NCBI GenBank assembly: GCA_905182515.1
Contig: CAJJBW010000006.1
Span: 1-64,000, forward strand
Direction: 5' to 3'
DNA from: an uncultured Candidatus Poseidoniales archaeon
Lineage (GTDB): Archaea; Thermoplasmatota; Poseidoniia; Poseidoniales; Thalassarchaeaceae
Length of the DNA: 64,000 nt
Shown here piece after piece: positions 50,972 to 57,608 of this stretch. Each line of letters begins with the position of its first letter. The stretch's first letter is position 1. A program made the position numbers and the translations under genes. The notes under the pieces are model-generated. The model was not told the origin of the DNA and ran no database searches. It was given only the letters and a program-made list of their open reading frames with translations.

Positions 50972-51868
50972 ATGAAATGGAAAGCAATAAATATGCCTAG
51001 TCAAGAGGGAAAAATAGCAATAGTTACTGGTTCGAATACAGGAACTGGATACCACATTGCCTACGGTCTTGCTTCTAAAGGAGCGTCTGTAATAATGGCG
51101 TGTAGAAATAATGAGAAAGCAGAACAGGCTAAACTAAATATTCTCAAAGACATCCCTCATGCCAATATAGTAATTGAACATCTAGATTTATCAGATTTAG
51201 AATCAATTTCAAATTTCACAAAAAGTATAAAGAATCAATATGACAAAATAGATATATTGGTCAACAATGCAGGCGTAATGGTACCGCCTCAATCAATTAC
51301 TACTGATGGTTTTGAGCTTCAATTTGGCACAAATCATATTGGCCATTTTGCCCTCTCAGGATTGTTGCTCCCACTTCTGGAGTCTGCAGAAAATGCGAGA
51401 GTAATCACAATGTCCAGTATTGCACACAATAGCGGTGTGATTGACTTCGAAGATCTACAAAGTAACCAAAAAAGATACAGTAAGTGGGGCAGTTATTCAC
51501 AGAGTAAACTTGCAAATCTTATATTTGCTATAGAATTTAATAGACGTTTAAAAAGCAATAATTCTAGTGTTACTTCGTTAGCAAGCCACCCAGGTTGGTC
51601 CGCTACAGATTTGCAGCGTCATTCACTCTTATTTCGTTTCTTGAATCTCATATTTGGGATGGCTCCTGTGAAAGGTGCTGCACCATGCCTATATGCAGCA
51701 ACTATGGATGATGCTCCAAATTATCCATATTGGGGTGTAACAAAAATTGGTGAAATGCATGGCTGGACTGGAAGAGCTAAAATAAATAATAAAGCGAATG
51801 ATGAATCGACAGCGTTGCGACTCTGGGATGTAAGTTGTGAATTATCAAGAGTAAGTTATCTCAATTAA
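50972..51868 (+). CDS. Short-chain dehydrogenase/reductase (retinol dehydrogenase-like)
   Basis: Rossmann enzyme with 'KIAIVTGSNTGTGYHIAYGL' (TGxxxGxG), 'DILVNNAGVMVPP' (NNAG), and the catalytic 'YSQSKLANLIF' (YxxxK) with a Ser in 'TMSSIAHNSG'. The 'EHLDLSDLESI' segment and start 'MKWKAINMPSQEGK' are typical of the retinol dehydrogenase/protochlorophyllide-reductase-like subgroup, which uses NADP. The substrate is unknown; lipophilic aldehydes or ketones are likely. It stands alone. Confidence 0.88.
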   Translation: MKWKAINMPSQEGKIAIVTGSNTGTGYHIAYGLASKGASVIMACRNNEKAEQAKLNILKDIPHANIVIEHLDLSDLESISNFTKSIKNQYDKIDILVNNAGVMVPPQSITTDGFELQFGTNHIGHFALSGLLLPLLESAENARVITMSSIAHNSGVIDFEDLQSNQKRYSKWGSYSQSKLANLIFAIEFNRRLKSNNSSVTSLASHPGWSATDLQRHSLLFRFLNLIFGMAPVKGAAPCLYAATMDDAPNYPYWGVTKIGEMHGWTGRAKINNKANDESTALRLWDVSCELSRVSYLN

Positions 51869-51933
51869 GTGCCAAAAAAAGAAATTTATAAATAAATAAA
51901 AAACAGTTTATTTTTAACAAATATATACATTTA

Positions 51934-52722
51934 TCATAATGGTGCATCCATAGTCCATAGAGTAGTAGGTTTGTGCCAATCTCGGAGTTGATCAGTCTCT
52001 AAACGCAACTGAAATGATTCCCCTTTTGATACATCTGTTTCTATTATTGCAAAGGGTATATTGTATATATTTACTCTAAATGTGTTATCAAATAATGTTT
52101 CTTGCCCTACTATTGACCCGTCTAGTGTACGTTCTAAAATAACTCTAATATGGCATTCTTGAAGTGGATTACGTAATGAACAAGATTCACTGCTTCCATC
52201 ATGCTCTACTGTGACAATGCCTTCTATTGTAATTACACCTTCTAAAGGAACTAGATTTACTATCGTGGCCTTTGCAGTAGGGGTGCAAACACATTCCATA
52301 TTATCTGACACAACGGAACCTTCAAAGGTCACCGTGACATTAATAGAATCTATTCTGATAGACTTGGATGTAGTTGAAGTTGCAGTAATATGATAAACTC
52401 CAGGTTTAGCATATTCATGTTCAACTTGAGGTCCGGTAGCCACTAATCCGTCCCCAAAATCCCAAGTAATTATTCCATTTGTAGCCGATGTTGAGAACTC
52501 AAATCTATGTAATCGCTCCGTCACTACATCCTCTTCATCATTATCTCCTTCATCTATTTCAACCAAAGTGTATATGTTAACTCCTTCAGTAATTGGTGCT
52601 TCAATCATAAACGAATTAGCCTCACCAATTGTTAAAGAACCTAGATTGTATAAAGTAATGCCAGTTACTCCACTTAATATCATTAAAAAAGACAAAACCG
52701 ATACAGAAATAGTAAACTTCAT
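51934..52722 (-). CDS. Secreted or membrane-anchored PKD-domain protein
   Basis: An N-terminal hydrophobic signal or anchor ('ISVSVLSFLMILSGVTGITL') precedes an extracytoplasmic region. Residues about 73-130 form a PKD beta-sandwich: 'GIITWDFGDGLVATGPQVEH' with 'YAKPGVYHITATS'. A second domain holds cysteines ('NMECVCTPTA', 'ESCSLRNPLQECHI') that could form disulfides. PKD domains mediate surface protein or glycan contacts. It is likely a cell-envelope protein of unknown partner. Confidence 0.75.
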   Translation of the reverse strand: MKFTISVSVLSFLMILSGVTGITLYNLGSLTIGEANSFMIEAPITEGVNIYTLVEIDEGDNDEEDVVTERLHRFEFSTSATNGIITWDFGDGLVATGPQVEHEYAKPGVYHITATSTTSKSIRIDSINVTVTFEGSVVSDNMECVCTPTAKATIVNLVPLEGVITIEGIVTVEHDGSSESCSLRNPLQECHIRVILERTLDGSIVGQETLFDNTFRVNIYNIPFAIIETDVSKGESFQLRLETDQLRDWHKPTTLWTMDAPL

Positions 52723-52847
52723 AACTTTATCAATATCGAATTACTTATGAATATCTGTTTATACCAGTTAGCCGACAATATATACGCATATATTACTTAT
52801 TACAATTGTAATAAAGTTTAATAGATTTATACGTCTGAAAGATAATA

Positions 52848-53552
52848 ATGTGGAGTAAATTTATTTTATCAAAAAAAAAAAATAATATAAAACATGTTAA
52901 GAATTCTGATGATGATTACCTGATAGATGCAGATGATAAATTGAAACCACTCATAATAACATTTGGTGGGATTTCTGGTGGCATATATCAACCAGTATTT
53001 GAATTTAAAAGATTTTTACTAAATAATGTAGATTGTCATTTTATTTTTGTAAAGGACACTAATCAATGTTGGTATCACAAGGGGGCAATTGGTTTAGGAG
53101 ATACCATTGAAGATTTAAAAATAAATCTTTTGAATATGATTGAAACTATTAATTATTCCAAAATAATAACTATTGGAGGATCAATGGGCGGTTTTGCTGC
53201 ATTATTATTTGGTAGTTTGATTAAAGCTGATGGAATCATATCTTTTAGTCCACAGACATTTATAGATAAAAATAATAGAAAAATACATAATGACAATAGA
53301 TGGCCTAATCAAATAAATAACGTGCAAAAGAAATTTGATGAAACTTATTTTGATTTATCAAATTTAAATTTTGATAAAATAAAAGTATATGCAATACACG
53401 GAAAAAAAGACAAATTAGATAAAATCCATAGTGAAAGGTTGAAAATTAAAAACTTTAAAATATCCAGTTATTACGGAGGTCATAATGTTGTTAAAACTAT
53501 CAGAGATAATGGAATATTAATAAAAATCATTAATGAATGTATTGAATCTTAA
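52848..53552 (+). CDS. Alpha/beta hydrolase-like protein
   Basis: A 234-residue protein with an oxyanion-type strand 'PLIITFGGISGGIYQP', a nucleophile elbow G-G-S-M-G-G ('KIITIGGSMGGFAALLFGSL') and the catalytic-acid region 'KVYAIHGKKDKLDK', with a late His in 'YYGGHNVVK'. The fold is that of serine hydrolases; similar small proteins occur in envelope polysaccharide clusters, but no such genes surround it. Codon nine onward contains a run of twelve A bases, a possible slippage site. The base composition is extremely AT-rich. Confidence 0.7.
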   Translation: MWSKFILSKKKNNIKHVKNSDDDYLIDADDKLKPLIITFGGISGGIYQPVFEFKRFLLNNVDCHFIFVKDTNQCWYHKGAIGLGDTIEDLKINLLNMIETINYSKIITIGGSMGGFAALLFGSLIKADGIISFSPQTFIDKNNRKIHNDNRWPNQINNVQKKFDETYFDLSNLNFDKIKVYAIHGKKDKLDKIHSERLKIKNFKISSYYGGHNVVKTIRDNGILIKIINECIES

Positions 53553-53633
53553 TTTAATATATTAAAAGTATTAATTTGTAAGTGATACATAGGATAAACA
53601 TTGTAAACCTAGATACTAAGGACGTTAGGAAAC

Positions 53634-54875
53634 ATGGGCACGAAGGCATATGATCTCTACGATTTAGAAGATAAATATCGAGATTCCTTAGAAATTTGTA
53701 AAAATTTCCTAATCTCAAAGGACAGAGTTGCTAAAGGATCCAACATAAACAAGGCAAGATTAGATTTTATCATTTTAAAGAACCCAAATTGTCCACTTTG
53801 TGGTGCAATATTTAACGGGAAAAATAGTAATACTGAACACATATTGCCACTGGGTTTGGGTGGTGAAAATATAATTAATAACAAAATTCAATTGTGTGTA
53901 GCTTGTAATGCTTCTAAAAATAATGTATTACAAAGTTACTTAGGACATCCTCCTTATTGGAAGTATTATGAAAACAAATGGAATACGATAAAGAAGTTTA
54001 TTTTATGGAGTGAAATTGTATCTGATGAAGGAATTGGTTCTAGCAATAGTGTCCCCTCAATGCATCAAAGATTCTTAGATGCTCGATTTGGAGGAATTGA
54101 AAATAACGTCGATGTTAGAGGATATGGGAGGTTATCTTCATGGAAAGTAGGTGACGAACCTAACATAATTTGCATTCAAAGTAATACTAAAAATATAGAT
54201 AAAAAACAAACACAAAATGGTTCAAAAAATATTATACTAACAATGTTCGAAAATGGCCTAAGTAAATTAGGAGATAAATTATTTATAGACGACACGAGAA
54301 CAATTAAACCATTAATGATAGGTGCTAGAAACAAATCTCATGATCAAAACAAACATGAAGTGAAAAAGGAGTTAACTGAACCATTAGATGTAGTGATAAA
54401 GAAACTAATTGGCAATGAAACTATATCACTTCAAAAACTAGGACATAACATATCAGAATACCAAGAAATAAAAAGTGGCACAAGAGGGACCAAGGCATTC
54501 TTTGCCGAATATGGGTGCAAAGGAACTATGAAAAATATATTAGTAAAGGAATTGGGAGAAATTATTGATATTAGTGGAAAGCATCCAAATCATCAAATAA
54601 AAATTTCAAAGTCAACGGACTTAGAAAATATTGATTTAGAGCCATTAGAAGAAGTGATAAAACTATTAATTGGCAAGGAAATGATTTCTCTCCAAAAACT
54701 TGGAAATAAAATATCTAAATATGAATACGAAAGAAGTGGTCTACGAGGGACCAAGGCATTCTTTGCGACTTATGGATATAAAGGAACTATGAAAAATATA
54801 TTAGAAAATGAATTAGTAAATATTATTGAGATTAATGGAGAACATCCAAATCACCAAATTAATATTAAAATATAA
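53634..54875 (+). CDS. HNH endonuclease-domain protein with two C-terminal repeats
   Basis: The N-terminal HNH core: C53-P-L-C56, 'NTEHILPLGLGGENIINN' (Glu68-His69 and Asn82/83), and 'LCVACNASKNN' (C88, C91, N92). The zinc and catalytic residues look intact. A middle region of unknown fold ('FGGIENNVDVRGYGRLSSW') follows. The last 165 residues are two copies of an 87-residue module, each ending 'GTKAFFAxYGxKGTMKNIL'. The layout suggests a nuclease guided by a repeated nucleic-acid-binding unit, perhaps LOTUS/OST-HTH-like, but that is inference. No restriction-modification partner is adjacent. Confidence 0.8.
   Translation: MGTKAYDLYDLEDKYRDSLEICKNFLISKDRVAKGSNINKARLDFIILKNPNCPLCGAIFNGKNSNTEHILPLGLGGENIINNKIQLCVACNASKNNVLQSYLGHPPYWKYYENKWNTIKKFILWSEIVSDEGIGSSNSVPSMHQRFLDARFGGIENNVDVRGYGRLSSWKVGDEPNIICIQSNTKNIDKKQTQNGSKNIILTMFENGLSKLGDKLFIDDTRTIKPLMIGARNKSHDQNKHEVKKELTEPLDVVIKKLIGNETISLQKLGHNISEYQEIKSGTRGTKAFFAEYGCKGTMKNILVKELGEIIDISGKHPNHQIKISKSTDLENIDLEPLEEVIKLLIGKEMISLQKLGNKISKYEYERSGLRGTKAFFATYGYKGTMKNILENELVNIIEINGEHPNHQINIKI
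54376..54870 (+). repeat. In-frame tandem duplication of an 87-codon module
   Basis: Two copies with a 261-base period; the most conserved 60 bases begin near 54484 and 54745. Protein and DNA identity are high in the 'KAFF..YG' block, indicating fairly recent internal duplication within the HNH gene. Confidence 0.85.
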
Positions 54876-54970
54876 ACATTAGAAATGAAAGATCTAAGAG
54901 AAGCAATTGTTGATGTGACTAGTTCTGTTTTGTAGAAATTTTGATTACCCGATACTTATTCCGATGTTTG

Positions 54971-55546
54971 ATGACTGATGTAAATCGATGCCTGTGGCCT
55001 ACAAAAGACCCTATGTATCTCAATTACCATGATCAAGAATGGGGGATTCCAAATCGGGATGGTCGCCAATTGTTTGAGAAAATTATACTCGAGGGCGCTC
55101 AGGCAGGACTCTCCTGGATAACCATCCTCAAGAAGCGTGAAAACTATAGGCACCTATTCGATAGATTTGATCCAGTAAAGGTGGCATCATATAATGAAAA
55201 AGATGTGTCTAGACTTATGGGAGATGCGGGTATCATTCGTAACCGTGCCAAGATTAATTCAGCAATAAATAACGCAAAAGCCTTTTGCAAGCACTTCGGA
55301 AATGATGAAGATGCTTTTAGTGAATTTTTATGGAGTTTTGTAGATGATAAACCAATCATCAATCAGAGGATGAGTATGGACGATATACCTCCTACATCTG
55401 AAATTAGTACGAAAATGAGTAAGCAATTAAAGAAAATGGGTTTCAGTTTCATTGGACCAACGACCTGCTATGCAATGATGCAGGCGACTGGAATGGTAGA
55501 TGACCACATAGTGACATGTTTCTGTCACACTTCAAATAGAAACTAG
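54971..55546 (+). CDS. tag: DNA-3-methyladenine glycosylase I
   Basis: TAG family base-excision enzyme: 'NRCLWPTKDPMYLNYHDQEW', 'RQLFEKIILEGAQAGLSWIT', 'LMGDAGIIRNRAKINSAINN' and 'SFIGPTTCYAMMQATGMVDD' followed by zinc-binding 'HIVTCFCH'. The catalytic Glu is in 'ILEGAQAGLSW'. It removes 3-methyladenine from alkylated DNA. The gene looks bacterial in sequence. ATG 54971 starts at the conserved N terminus; the frame opens earlier at 54941. Confidence 0.94.
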   Translation: MTDVNRCLWPTKDPMYLNYHDQEWGIPNRDGRQLFEKIILEGAQAGLSWITILKKRENYRHLFDRFDPVKVASYNEKDVSRLMGDAGIIRNRAKINSAINNAKAFCKHFGNDEDAFSEFLWSFVDDKPIINQRMSMDDIPPTSEISTKMSKQLKKMGFSFIGPTTCYAMMQATGMVDDHIVTCFCHTSNRN

Positions 55547-55548
55547 AA

Positions 55549-55635
55549 TTAGGGAGTATTAAATCTAAAAAGGTAATTTATTGAAAATAATGTTAGTATC
55601 GCAACAAATAAAATATATTGTATCACTTTACGCAT
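55549..55635 (-). pseudogene. Truncated copy of a signal-peptide protein gene
   Basis: Reads 'MRKVIQYILFVAILTLF', near-identical to the N terminus 'MRKVIHRILIVAILTLFSLP' of the protein at 55755-56261, then diverges after about 17 residues and stops at 28. Its 5' flank is also duplicated. It is a relic of a partial duplication or of a paralogue mostly lost; a tiny membrane peptide could still be made. Confidence 0.65.
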
Positions 55636-55697
55636 GAATCCCCATCACAACAGAAGGTTAATGGAGTAATCTGTTCAACATGTCAGATAATCAAAAC
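55582..55697. repeat. Direct repeat copy A (with 56208-56323)
   Basis: 116 bases align without gaps to 56208-56323, offset 626. The shared segment covers the start codon, signal-peptide coding part and the upstream region of the gene at 55755-56261. The first 22 bases are identical. Confidence 0.85.
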
Positions 55698-55754
55698 TAG
55701 GTATTATAAGTACAATAATTAAATGCTTCGACTCATGAATCATGAATTATTTTT

Positions 55755-56261
55755 TTAGATGGATTTTTTTTTAACATACAAAAGGAACATAAGAAGGCCT
55801 TCGGATAGTTTAGAGCTCAATCCTAAATAATCTTCAACGATGTAATGTATGTCTGGGTTAGAAACGAAGTATGCTACGAACATGGACATGAGAATCAATA
55901 ATAGTGATATCCATGAAATATGGGTAGTTTGCTGATTGAGTTTAGCAAAGATTGTCAAAAATAATATACCATAAATTCCCAAACCACCAACCAACAGTAA
56001 TGAATCATCCAAACCCAGAAGAATATGCACTGTTCCAGTATACAAAGCGAGTGAAAACGTCAAAGGAGTGAATATTTCTGATTGGAAATTGATCCATTCC
56101 TTTAATAACATATATGAGAAAAGTGAAGTTAATATCGCGATAATCATTATGTATAAGTTACTGATTGTTTGGAGATTACCATCACCATGAGCGGAGGCGA
56201 TTGGAAGTGAAAATAATGTTAGTATCGCAACAATTAAAATTCGGTGTATAACTTTACGCAT
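55755..56261 (-). CDS. Membrane protein with cleavable signal peptide, unknown function
   Basis: A signal peptide 'MRKVIHRILIVAILTLFSLP' with AxA-type end ('ASAHGDG') precedes four to five hydrophobic helices (about residues 34-52, 64-82, 88-105, 113-131). A His directly after the cleavage site could bind metal. No family recognised. The last residues run into Lys and a short tail. The 5' portion and promoter are duplicated nearby. Confidence 0.65.
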   Translation of the reverse strand: MRKVIHRILIVAILTLFSLPIASAHGDGNLQTISNLYIMIIAILTSLFSYMLLKEWINFQSEIFTPLTFSLALYTGTVHILLGLDDSLLLVGGLGIYGILFLTIFAKLNQQTTHISWISLLLILMSMFVAYFVSNPDIHYIVEDYLGLSSKLSEGLLMFLLYVKKKSI

Positions 56262-56323
56262 GAATTCTCCTTACAACAGTAGGTTTATCTACTCATCTGT
56301 TCAACAGGTCTGATAATCAAAAC
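56208..56323. repeat. Direct repeat copy B (with 55582-55697)
   Basis: Partner of the repeat at 55582-55697; includes the start and upstream control region of the signal-peptide membrane protein. The segment CTGTTCAACA followed by TGATAATCAAAAC is conserved in both, suggesting that the promoter was copied with the gene start. Confidence 0.85.
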
Positions 56324-56369
56324 CTTTTTTTTACGGCACATTAAATAGTGAGTTGAATATCAACAAATT

Positions 56370-57608
56370 GTGGGTCTTGATTCGTGGATGCTAAATTTAC
56401 TAACCAGTAAAGGATTGGGACTAGAGATGGCCCATTATGTCTTGTTGGCAATTGGTTCGATCTTTCTTTTACTGGTTTGTTTATTAGGTAATTTTGTAAC
56501 AAAGAAGTTCATCGTCAAAGGCATTCAAAAGTTAATTAGGAATTCTAAAAACGATTGGGATGATATATTACTAGAGAAAAAGGTGTTTCATTCTTTATCT
56601 ACTCTGGTGCCGTTGATTTTTATCCAATATCTCTCGATTCCAATTCTTTCGAATTTCTCTTTTTTGATTCCGTTTGTTCACATTGTTGTAAAGGTATCAC
56701 TGGTATTGGTGATAGCATCTGTTATGATTAAGACGTTAAAAACATTGGATGAGGTCAGTACAAGAATCCCTTATTTCAAAGACAAGCCGATTGGGAGTTA
56801 TGTTCAGCTTGTAAATATCATGATTAACGTGGTGGCTGCAATCTTAATTTTTGCAACTATTCTTAATAGAGATCCATTAGCGTTGTTGGGTGCTTTAGGT
56901 GCTTTAACGGCTGTTCTCATGTTGGTTTTTAAGGATACCATTCTTGGTTTAGTGGCAAGTATTCAACTTTCTTCGCACGACATGGTTCGTGTTGGAGATT
57001 GGGTTTCTATGCCTAAGTACGAGACTGATGGAGATGTTTTAGAGATTACTTTGAATACGGTCAAGATTCAAAACTGGGATAAAACAATTTCCACTATTCC
57101 AACTTATGCTTTCATTTCAGGCTCTTTTAAGAATTGGAGAGGGATGGCAGATTCTAAAGGGAGAAGAATTAAGAGGTCGGTAAACATCAATATGATGAGC
57201 ATCAGGTTTTGTACGGATGAAGAAATCACTCAATACAAAAGTGTTGAGTTGTTGAAGGATTATATTGAATCTATTCAGAACGAAATATCATCCCACAATG
57301 AGACCAATAGGCATGACAAGGCATATTTGTTGAATGGCCGAAACCTTACCAATATTGGACTATTCAGAGAGTATGCTCATCAGTATTTGTCGGCCAATGA
57401 AAACCTTAGAATGGATTTGACCTTGATGGTTCGGCAGTTAGAGCCAACAGAAAATGGTTTACCGATAGAGGTTTATTGCTTTAGTAACAATATTGAATGG
57501 GTAGAGTATGAAAGAATTCAAGCTGATATATTCGATCACCTTTTATCGTCAATATCTAATTTCGATTTAGAAATATTTCAGAATCCCACGGGGAAATTCG
57601 GAAGTTAA
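56370..57608 (+). CDS. MscS-family mechanosensitive channel (YbdG-like)
   Basis: Five hydrophobic helices, ending in the pore-lining TM3 'LGALGALTAVLMLVFKDTIL' followed by the beta domain 'DMVRVGDWVSMPKYETDGDV' and 'LNTVKIQNWDKTISTIPTYA'. These are specific to the larger YbdG/MscM branch of MscS channels, which relieve osmotic stress. The codons and base composition are less AT-biased than neighbours, suggesting recent acquisition from bacteria. The start is GTG 56370 or TTG 56368 region; N terminus approximate. Confidence 0.88.
   Translation: MGLDSWMLNLLTSKGLGLEMAHYVLLAIGSIFLLLVCLLGNFVTKKFIVKGIQKLIRNSKNDWDDILLEKKVFHSLSTLVPLIFIQYLSIPILSNFSFLIPFVHIVVKVSLVLVIASVMIKTLKTLDEVSTRIPYFKDKPIGSYVQLVNIMINVVAAILIFATILNRDPLALLGALGALTAVLMLVFKDTILGLVASIQLSSHDMVRVGDWVSMPKYETDGDVLEITLNTVKIQNWDKTISTIPTYAFISGSFKNWRGMADSKGRRIKRSVNINMMSIRFCTDEEITQYKSVELLKDYIESIQNEISSHNETNRHDKAYLLNGRNLTNIGLFREYAHQYLSANENLRMDLTLMVRQLEPTENGLPIEVYCFSNNIEWVEYERIQADIFDHLLSSISNFDLEIFQNPTGKFGS

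What the first reader, a model, noticed from the sequence alone, without database searches (positions are those of the whole stretch)
53634..54875. HNH nuclease with duplicated 87-residue C-terminal module
The HNH core is intact and followed by two near-identical modules ending in the same KAFFxxYGxKGTMKNIL-type motif. The 261-base period is visible in the DNA, so the duplication is recent. Module architecture (helix, 'ISLQKLG', loop, 'KAFF') recalls LOTUS/OST-HTH RNA-binding folds, which would make this a nuclease guided by nucleic-acid readers. It sits alone in an accessory AT-rich stretch and could be a defence or homing element.
Basis: partly seen in the sequence, partly recalled or inferred. 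Interest (0 to 1): 0.6.

Follow-up and report, generated by a model that had tools for sequence, protein, structure and literature searches.

The report
Archaeal modular nuclease with LOTUS-like modules
This gene of a marine Group II archaeon encodes a DNA-cutting-type (HNH) nuclease with two copies of a small winged-helix module, and relatives in the same order carry the same module behind entirely different RNA-cutting domains, pointing to a previously undescribed family of mix-and-match nucleases aimed by a shared reader module.

Summary
ORF 53634-54875 (413 aa) has an intact HNH_5 domain and two modules 87 residues (261 nt) apart, 68% identical as protein and 77% as DNA. They are not near-identical (dS about 0.6), but they group together against the homologues.
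The genome is a Poseidoniales (Marine Group II) MAG. Module profiles hit 39 of 319 Poseidoniales genomes, patchily, and no genome outside the order in a 390-genome sample of the phylum.
The key new fact is that the same module family follows three kinds of nuclease: HNH, Zc3h12a-type NYN RNase and LabA-type NYN RNase. The catalytic domain changed about four times on the module tree. In one genome an HNH and an NYN protein carry modules 56% identical. The first two kinds also share an amphipathic linker motif.
AlphaFold gives a confident winged helix (pLDDT 92) with a helical insert between helices 2 and 3. Its best PDB matches are LOTUS domains, but below significance. Pfam and profile comparison do not reach OST-HTH, so membership is unproven.
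Copy number varies from 1 to 3 and the loci are accessory. Most likely it is an accessory nuclease targeted to nucleic acid by its modules. Defence is plausible but unsupported by neighbours or PADLOC.

The parts
53634..54875 (+). 413-aa HNH nuclease with two C-terminal winged-helix modules (whole gene, stop included)
   Evidence: ORF; HNH_5 E=1e-9; full-length homologues at 63% identity in two genomes of the same genus and 33-36% in Poseidoniaceae
53634..54188 (+). N-terminal nuclease domain, residues 1-185: helical start, HNH core, and a conserved extension ending in YGRxSSWxxGDxPN
   Evidence: Alignment A2 of ten homologues; domain family confined to Poseidoniales among 380 phylum genomes
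53790..53942 (+). HNH_5 core, residues 53-103 (C53xxC56, E68H69, N83, C88xxC91N92)
   Evidence: Pfam PF14279; invariant columns
54228..54284 (+). Linker segment NIILTMFENGLSKLGDKLF, residues 199-217, in the position of the amphipathic motif (GxFIxVxDRLFGY) of relatives; the window copy is a weak match
   Evidence: A1 consensus; motif shared between HNH and NYN proteins
54375..54608 (+). Module 1, residues 248-325, LOTUS-like winged helix
   Evidence: Repeat; profile A3/A7 hits; helices and wing in full-length model
54636..54872 (+). Module 2, residues 335-413, LOTUS-like winged helix
   Evidence: AF2 model mean pLDDT 92.3, H4-12 H19-34 H39-44 H52-59 E64-67 E74-77; Foldseek top match LOTUS domain of Tejas

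Best explanation
The gene is one member of a Poseidoniales-specific family of modular nucleases. A swappable N-terminal nuclease (HNH here; Zc3h12a-type or LabA-type NYN RNase in relatives) is joined by a flexible linker, often carrying an amphipathic helix, to one to three copies of a LOTUS-like winged-helix module. The shared module most likely binds a class of nucleic acid, probably structured or foreign RNA or an RNA-DNA structure, and so places the nuclease on its target; two copies would raise avidity. The protein is accessory and works as a targeted nuclease, plausibly against mobile elements or viruses. Shown: architecture, repeat, fold class (predicted), catalytic-domain swapping, patchy distribution. 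Inferred: nucleic-acid binding, target, and biological role.
For: The HNH core is intact. The same module family follows HNH proteins and NYN RNases that pass Pfam cut-offs (RNase_Zc3h12a in L028, L030, L041; NYN in L037, L040). On the module tree the catalytic type changes four times, three forced by well-supported branches. HNH protein L111 and NYN protein L028, both of genome G178, have modules identical at 45 of 81 residues. A linker motif built from HNH proteins finds six NYN proteins at 8.4-11.1 bits; the best of 1080 shuffles was 3.7. The AF2 model has pLDDT 92 with helix 1, helix 2, an inserted short helix, helix 3 and a beta wing. LOTUS domains lead the PDB matches. LOTUS binds RNA in MARF1, behind a NYN domain (PMC10226599). 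Distribution is patchy, 39 of 319 genomes in 10 of 22 genera. The locus is accessory: in G002/G003 the homologue sits in a block beside a DNA polymerase B gene; none of that block's genes was found beside the polymerase gene in four congeners. The window neighbours Tag and MscS have no ortholog in the other nine congeners.
Against: Foldseek matches are not significant (best E 0.29). Profile comparison to bacterial OST-HTH failed. Modules are not strongly basic (mean net charge +1.9; window modules 0 and +3). No recurrent defence neighbours were recognised. Pairing an HNH (usually DNase) with a module shared by RNases could equally mean the module binds a protein partner.
Confidence: 0.55

Rival explanations
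1. The module is a protein-protein adaptor: like the LOTUS domains that bind the helicase Vasa, it recruits different nucleases to a common protein partner such as a helicase or an RNP complex, and does not bind nucleic acid itself.
For: One module is shared by nucleases of different substrate type. It is weakly charged. [quoted passage not shown]
Against: Some LOTUS domains bind RNA directly (PMC10226599; PMC12247748). No conserved neighbour encodes an obvious partner.
Confidence: 0.25
2. The gene is a cargo or selfish nuclease, such as an HNH homing-type or mobile-element gene, that spreads with islands and has no host function.
For: Patchy distribution; different loci in related genomes; AT-rich gene.
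Against: No module homologue was found in viral contigs, and no plasmid or phage relative beyond the HNH core. Poseidoniaceae members share one fixed locus. Purifying selection acts on the modules (L047/L048 dN 0.01-0.03 against dS 0.19-0.28).
Confidence: 0.12
3. The proteins are housekeeping or repair nucleases of these archaea, lost from view in many incomplete MAGs.
For: In the window a DNA-repair gene (methyladenine glycosylase, 54941-55546) follows immediately.
Against: Only 7 of 35 genomes that are at least 90% complete carry the module. Context differs between families, and the glycosylase is absent from congeners.
Confidence: 0.08

Closest known systems
OST-HTH/LOTUS domain proteins with LK/NYN (DUF88) nuclease, e.g. 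bacterial NYN-OST-HTH, MARF1, plant DNE1
   Same: N-terminal nuclease plus C-terminal winged-helix modules in one or more copies; insert helix between helices 2 and 3; several relatives here do have NYN nucleases
   Different: Here the nuclease is HNH; module sequence is not matched by Pfam PF12872 and the Ghxph motif is stretched by 1-3 residues; confined to Poseidoniales, whereas OST-HTH is described as very rare in archaea (PMC2848206)
HNH_5 family (PF14279)
   Same: Core domain passes the Pfam cut-off with conserved C4 zinc site and EH...N...N
   Different: Extra conserved N-terminal domain parts, linker motif and modules
IscB / Cas9 HNH
   Same: Weak similarity of the HNH core only (NF040563 18.1 bits)
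   Different: Score is far under the 175-bit cut-off; no RuvC domain in the protein; no Rfam RNA family at the locus
Variable-effector conflict proteins (e.g. TRADD-N, EAD systems of PMC8195603)
   Same: Swapping of N-terminal effector nucleases ahead of a constant C-terminal module between close relatives
   Different: No NTPase, Death-like or other signalling domain seen; no operon partner

Membership tests
OST-HTH/LOTUS (PF12872) | Sequence match to the family profile | tested here: not met
   No PF12872 match in window or relatives, E up to 10; 0 of 59 genomes, though controls also stayed silent; hhalign 2.7-6.2%. Sensitivity limit: the bacterial profile A6 finds 2kpm and 2kzv but none of the eukaryotic LOTUS structures
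OST-HTH/LOTUS (PF12872) | Winged helix with an extended insert between helix 2 and helix 3 that forms about two helical turns (PMC2848206) | tested here: met
   AF2 pLDDT 92: H4-12, H19-34, insert helix H39-44, H52-59, wing E64-67 and E74-77; a prediction, not a solved structure
OST-HTH/LOTUS (PF12872) | Closest solved fold is LOTUS | tested here: inconclusive
   Six of ten best PDB matches are LOTUS chains, best prob 0.80 and TM 0.55-0.57, but E=0.29 and none at E<=0.001
OST-HTH/LOTUS (PF12872) | Ghxph motif in the insert | tested here: inconclusive
   Nearly invariant G followed by hydrophobic-x-polar in many modules (GLPKGL, GFDGKI, GLKKTQSY), but 1-3 extra residues before the last hydrophobic position
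OST-HTH/LOTUS (PF12872) | C-terminal fusion to LK/NYN-type RNase in prokaryotes | tested here: met
   Relatives of the module follow RNase_Zc3h12a or NYN domains over Pfam cut-offs; not the window gene itself
OST-HTH/LOTUS (PF12872) | RNA binding | not testable with these tools
   Needs binding assays
HNH_5 nuclease (PF14279) | Profile score over cut-off and conserved catalytic residues | tested here: met
   38.6 bits against 27.5; E68H69, N83, N92 and four cysteines invariant
IscB/Cas9 RNA-guided nuclease | RuvC domain around HNH and equivalog score | tested here: not met
   NF040563 18.1 bits against 175; no RuvC-type Pfam match; no Rfam match at 51000-57000
Homing endonuclease | Location in an intron or intein, or free-standing next to a target gene | tested here: inconclusive
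   Free-standing gene in an accessory stretch; no split host gene noticed; not searched for systematically
Known anti-phage system (PADLOC) | Match over most of a PADLOC model | tested here: not met
   Only partial HNH-core matches for the window protein, best E 6e-4

The most novel reading that the evidence does not exclude
Poseidoniales possess a lineage-specific conflict system of membrane-tethered modular nucleases. A constant cassette, made of an amphipathic (MinD/FtsA-like) anchor helix and LOTUS-like reader modules, is combined with interchangeable effector nucleases (HNH, two kinds of NYN) to destroy incoming viral or plasmid nucleic acid at the membrane.
Probability: 0.15. Interest if true: 0.8.

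Novelty: new variant of a known kind. Interest (0 to 1): 0.5.

Why it matters
LOTUS/OST-HTH domains are known as RNA readers attached to NYN RNases in bacteria and eukaryotes and are described as very rare in archaea. [quoted passage not shown]

Tried and rejected
RNA-guided (IscB/Cas9-like) nuclease: rejected, HNH core similarity only. Known defence family: rejected at PADLOC level. Viral or plasmid origin: no module in viral contigs (29 viral HNH loci scanned for modules, best E 0.03), one phage HNH-core match only, no plasmid match. OST-HTH membership by sequence: not achieved. Synteny anchors SDR (50972) and MscS (56370) did not give an empty site for the window locus; the empty-site comparison was therefore made only at the G002/G003 locus, from the polymerase side. 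A whole-protein AF2 model was poor outside the modules (mean pLDDT 52.9), so the HNH part was not used for fold searches. Hydrophobic-moment ranking did not cleanly single out the linker helix, because basic linkers dominate the score; the motif-profile test was used instead.

Full report
Observation. ORF 53634-54875 on the + strand encodes 413 residues. Residues 53-103 match HNH_5 at E=1e-9, over the curated cut-off. In an alignment of ten relatives C53, C56, E68, H69, N83, C88, C91 and N92 are invariant, so the zinc-binding and catalytic residues are intact. The C-terminal repeat is real: 239 nt, spacing 261, 77% identical, against a best of 46% in 50 codon shuffles. The two modules are residues 248-325 and 335-413. 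They are 68% identical as protein with dS 0.60. That is not near-identical, but they group together rather than with the matching module of the nearest homologue. So either the duplication or a homogenising event is younger than the split from that homologue, or both lineages duplicated separately. The nearest homologues also have two modules that resemble each other most (79-81%).

Where it is. The window lies in a 1.26-Mb genome of 13 contigs, 71% complete. Record titles of the closest homologue loci name Thalassarchaeaceae and Poseidoniaceae, so the order is Poseidoniales, Marine Group II. The homologue at 63% identity occurs in two of nine congeners, G002 and G003. There it sits between a DUF2130 gene and a cyclophilin-pentapeptide gene next to a family B DNA polymerase gene. 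In four other congeners the polymerase gene is present, but none of the flanking block's genes (the 652-aa gene, DUF2130, HNH, the 631-aa gene) was found in the stretch fetched beside it; for one of the four only about 2 kb upstream was available. In the window the neighbours are an abhydrolase ORF, a methyladenine glycosylase with no match in the other nine genomes of the genus, and an MscS-type channel without an ortholog there. The gene is accessory and its context is not fixed between genera. Within Poseidoniaceae four records share one locus, next to an RND-type gene and an MscS-type gene.

What the module is. A module profile (A3, then a deeper A7) found matches in 39 of 319 Poseidoniales genomes, in 10 of 22 genera. 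In a sample of 390 genomes of the phylum all 14 genomes with a match belong to this order. Reading out the host proteins showed three kinds of catalytic domain in front of the module: HNH of several subtypes; Zc3h12a-type NYN RNases; and LabA-type NYN proteins. Pfam confirms RNase_Zc3h12a (L028, L030, L041) and NYN (L037, L040) above their cut-offs. On a maximum-likelihood tree of 43 modules the catalytic type changes four times, and well-supported branches force three for the HNH label. The tree has few columns and several long branches, so the exact number is soft. The clearest single case is in genome G178: the HNH protein L111 and the NYN protein L028 have modules identical at 45 of 81 residues. 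The swap extends to the linker. A 14-residue motif built from HNH proteins (KGVFISVFDRLFGY and the like) finds RSLFIRVLDLLF and its relatives in six NYN proteins at 8.4-11.1 bits, while the best of 1080 shuffled proteins scored 3.7.

Fold. AlphaFold2 on 14 modules gave mean pLDDT 92.3 and helix-helix-short helix-helix-strand-strand. This is a winged helix with a helical insert between helices 2 and 3, the feature by which the OST-HTH paper separates OST-HTH from other winged helices (PMC2848206). Foldseek against the PDB put the LOTUS domain of Tejas first (E 0.29, probability 0.80), and LOTUS chains (Tejas, Marf1, TDRD7 twice, Oskar twice) fill six of the first ten places, but none is significant. 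By sequence, neither Pfam nor hhalign against a bacterial OST-HTH alignment built here (A6, 11 plasmid-encoded NYN or OST-HTH proteins) made the link; the best hhalign alignments are in a shifted register. A6 itself recovers the bacterial structures 2kpm and 2kzv and none of the eukaryotic LOTUS structures, so this negative result has little power. The seed used to find the plasmid OST-HTH genes was a consensus written from memory; the records it found are annotated as NYN or OST-HTH proteins, which checks it. I therefore call the module LOTUS-like and do not file it as a family member.

Copy number. One module: L105, and most NYN proteins. Two: the window, L002, L003, L005. Three winged-helix-like units: L106 and L107 by profile; L004, L006 and L017 have two plus a third, divergent domain. 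L007 and L008 keep the same HNH N-terminus with other C-terminal domains.

How it most likely works. In MARF1 the LOTUS domains bind RNA and the NYN domain cleaves it (PMC10226599). By analogy, the modules here would hold a nucleic acid and the N-terminal nuclease would cut it or what lies next to it. Exchange of RNase for HNH on the same module suggests that the module defines the target and the nuclease the damage. Shown: architecture, swapping, predicted fold class, patchy accessory distribution. Inferred: binding, target, role. The amphipathic linker motif resembles membrane-targeting helices of MinD and FtsA (from memory, not tested), and the hydrophobic-moment scan was not decisive. Against the model: the modules carry little net positive charge, and LOTUS domains can also act as protein adaptors for a helicase (PMC5458760, abstract). 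A defence role is plausible from distribution and effector swapping, but no defence neighbour or PADLOC family supports it.

Novelty. Literature searches found no description of HNH with OST-HTH/LOTUS or of such nucleases in Poseidoniales; the library is limited to open papers. The OST-HTH paper states that the domain is very rare in archaea and does not mention HNH. I rate it a new variant of a known kind: nuclease plus LOTUS-like reader, with an unusual catalytic domain, an archaeal expansion, and clear exchange of the catalytic domain.

Noticed in passing
L004-L006, L017, L105 (HNH) and L028-L032, L095 (NYN), linker regions; window 54228-54284 (weak): Conserved amphipathic motif [KR][GS]xF[IW]x[VI][FL]D[RL][LI]F in otherwise variable linkers, shared by HNH and NYN proteins; resembles a membrane-targeting helix. 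Other relatives have comparable helices (RRLTRFITGLLKRK in L011, RLRSWFKGVFGKKK in L034, GILKRIFSMIFGD at the C-terminus of L110).
   Followed up: partly
L009, L010, L012, L033, L111 and L037, L040, L007, L015, L102: Two further recurrent accessory domains, 'FDLxxWLxENWxxxSxYxxL...DFxIPKSW' and 'LPxxPEDFAxSVxWFxxNYxGF...', occur with both HNH and NYN nucleases or in their relatives; no Pfam family matched them.
   Followed up: no
L105:805-1770: 321-aa HNH protein of Poseidoniaceae with the linker motif and a single module; a possible minimal form for structural work.
   Followed up: no
L010/L024/L098 (genome G090): HNH protein of more than 660 aa with several different accessory modules in series, apparently one of the largest arrays in the set.
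   Followed up: no
window 52848-54875: The abhydrolase-fold ORF (GC 0.25) and the HNH gene form the most AT-rich stretch of their size in the window and may have arrived together.
   Followed up: partly
window 54941-57608: The methyladenine glycosylase and the MscS-type channel downstream have no ortholog in nine congeneric genomes, so the variable stretch extends past the HNH gene.
   Followed up: partly
L047, L048 (6432-8327 and 4975-6870, - strand): 631-aa lipoprotein-like gene joining a cyclophilin domain to long pentapeptide repeats beside the HNH homologue (Pfam run on the L047 copy).
   Followed up: no
L050, L054 and the window: An MscS-type channel gene lies just downstream of the HNH homologue in Poseidoniaceae and 1.5 kb downstream in the window; the two channels are not close relatives, so this may be chance.
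   Followed up: no
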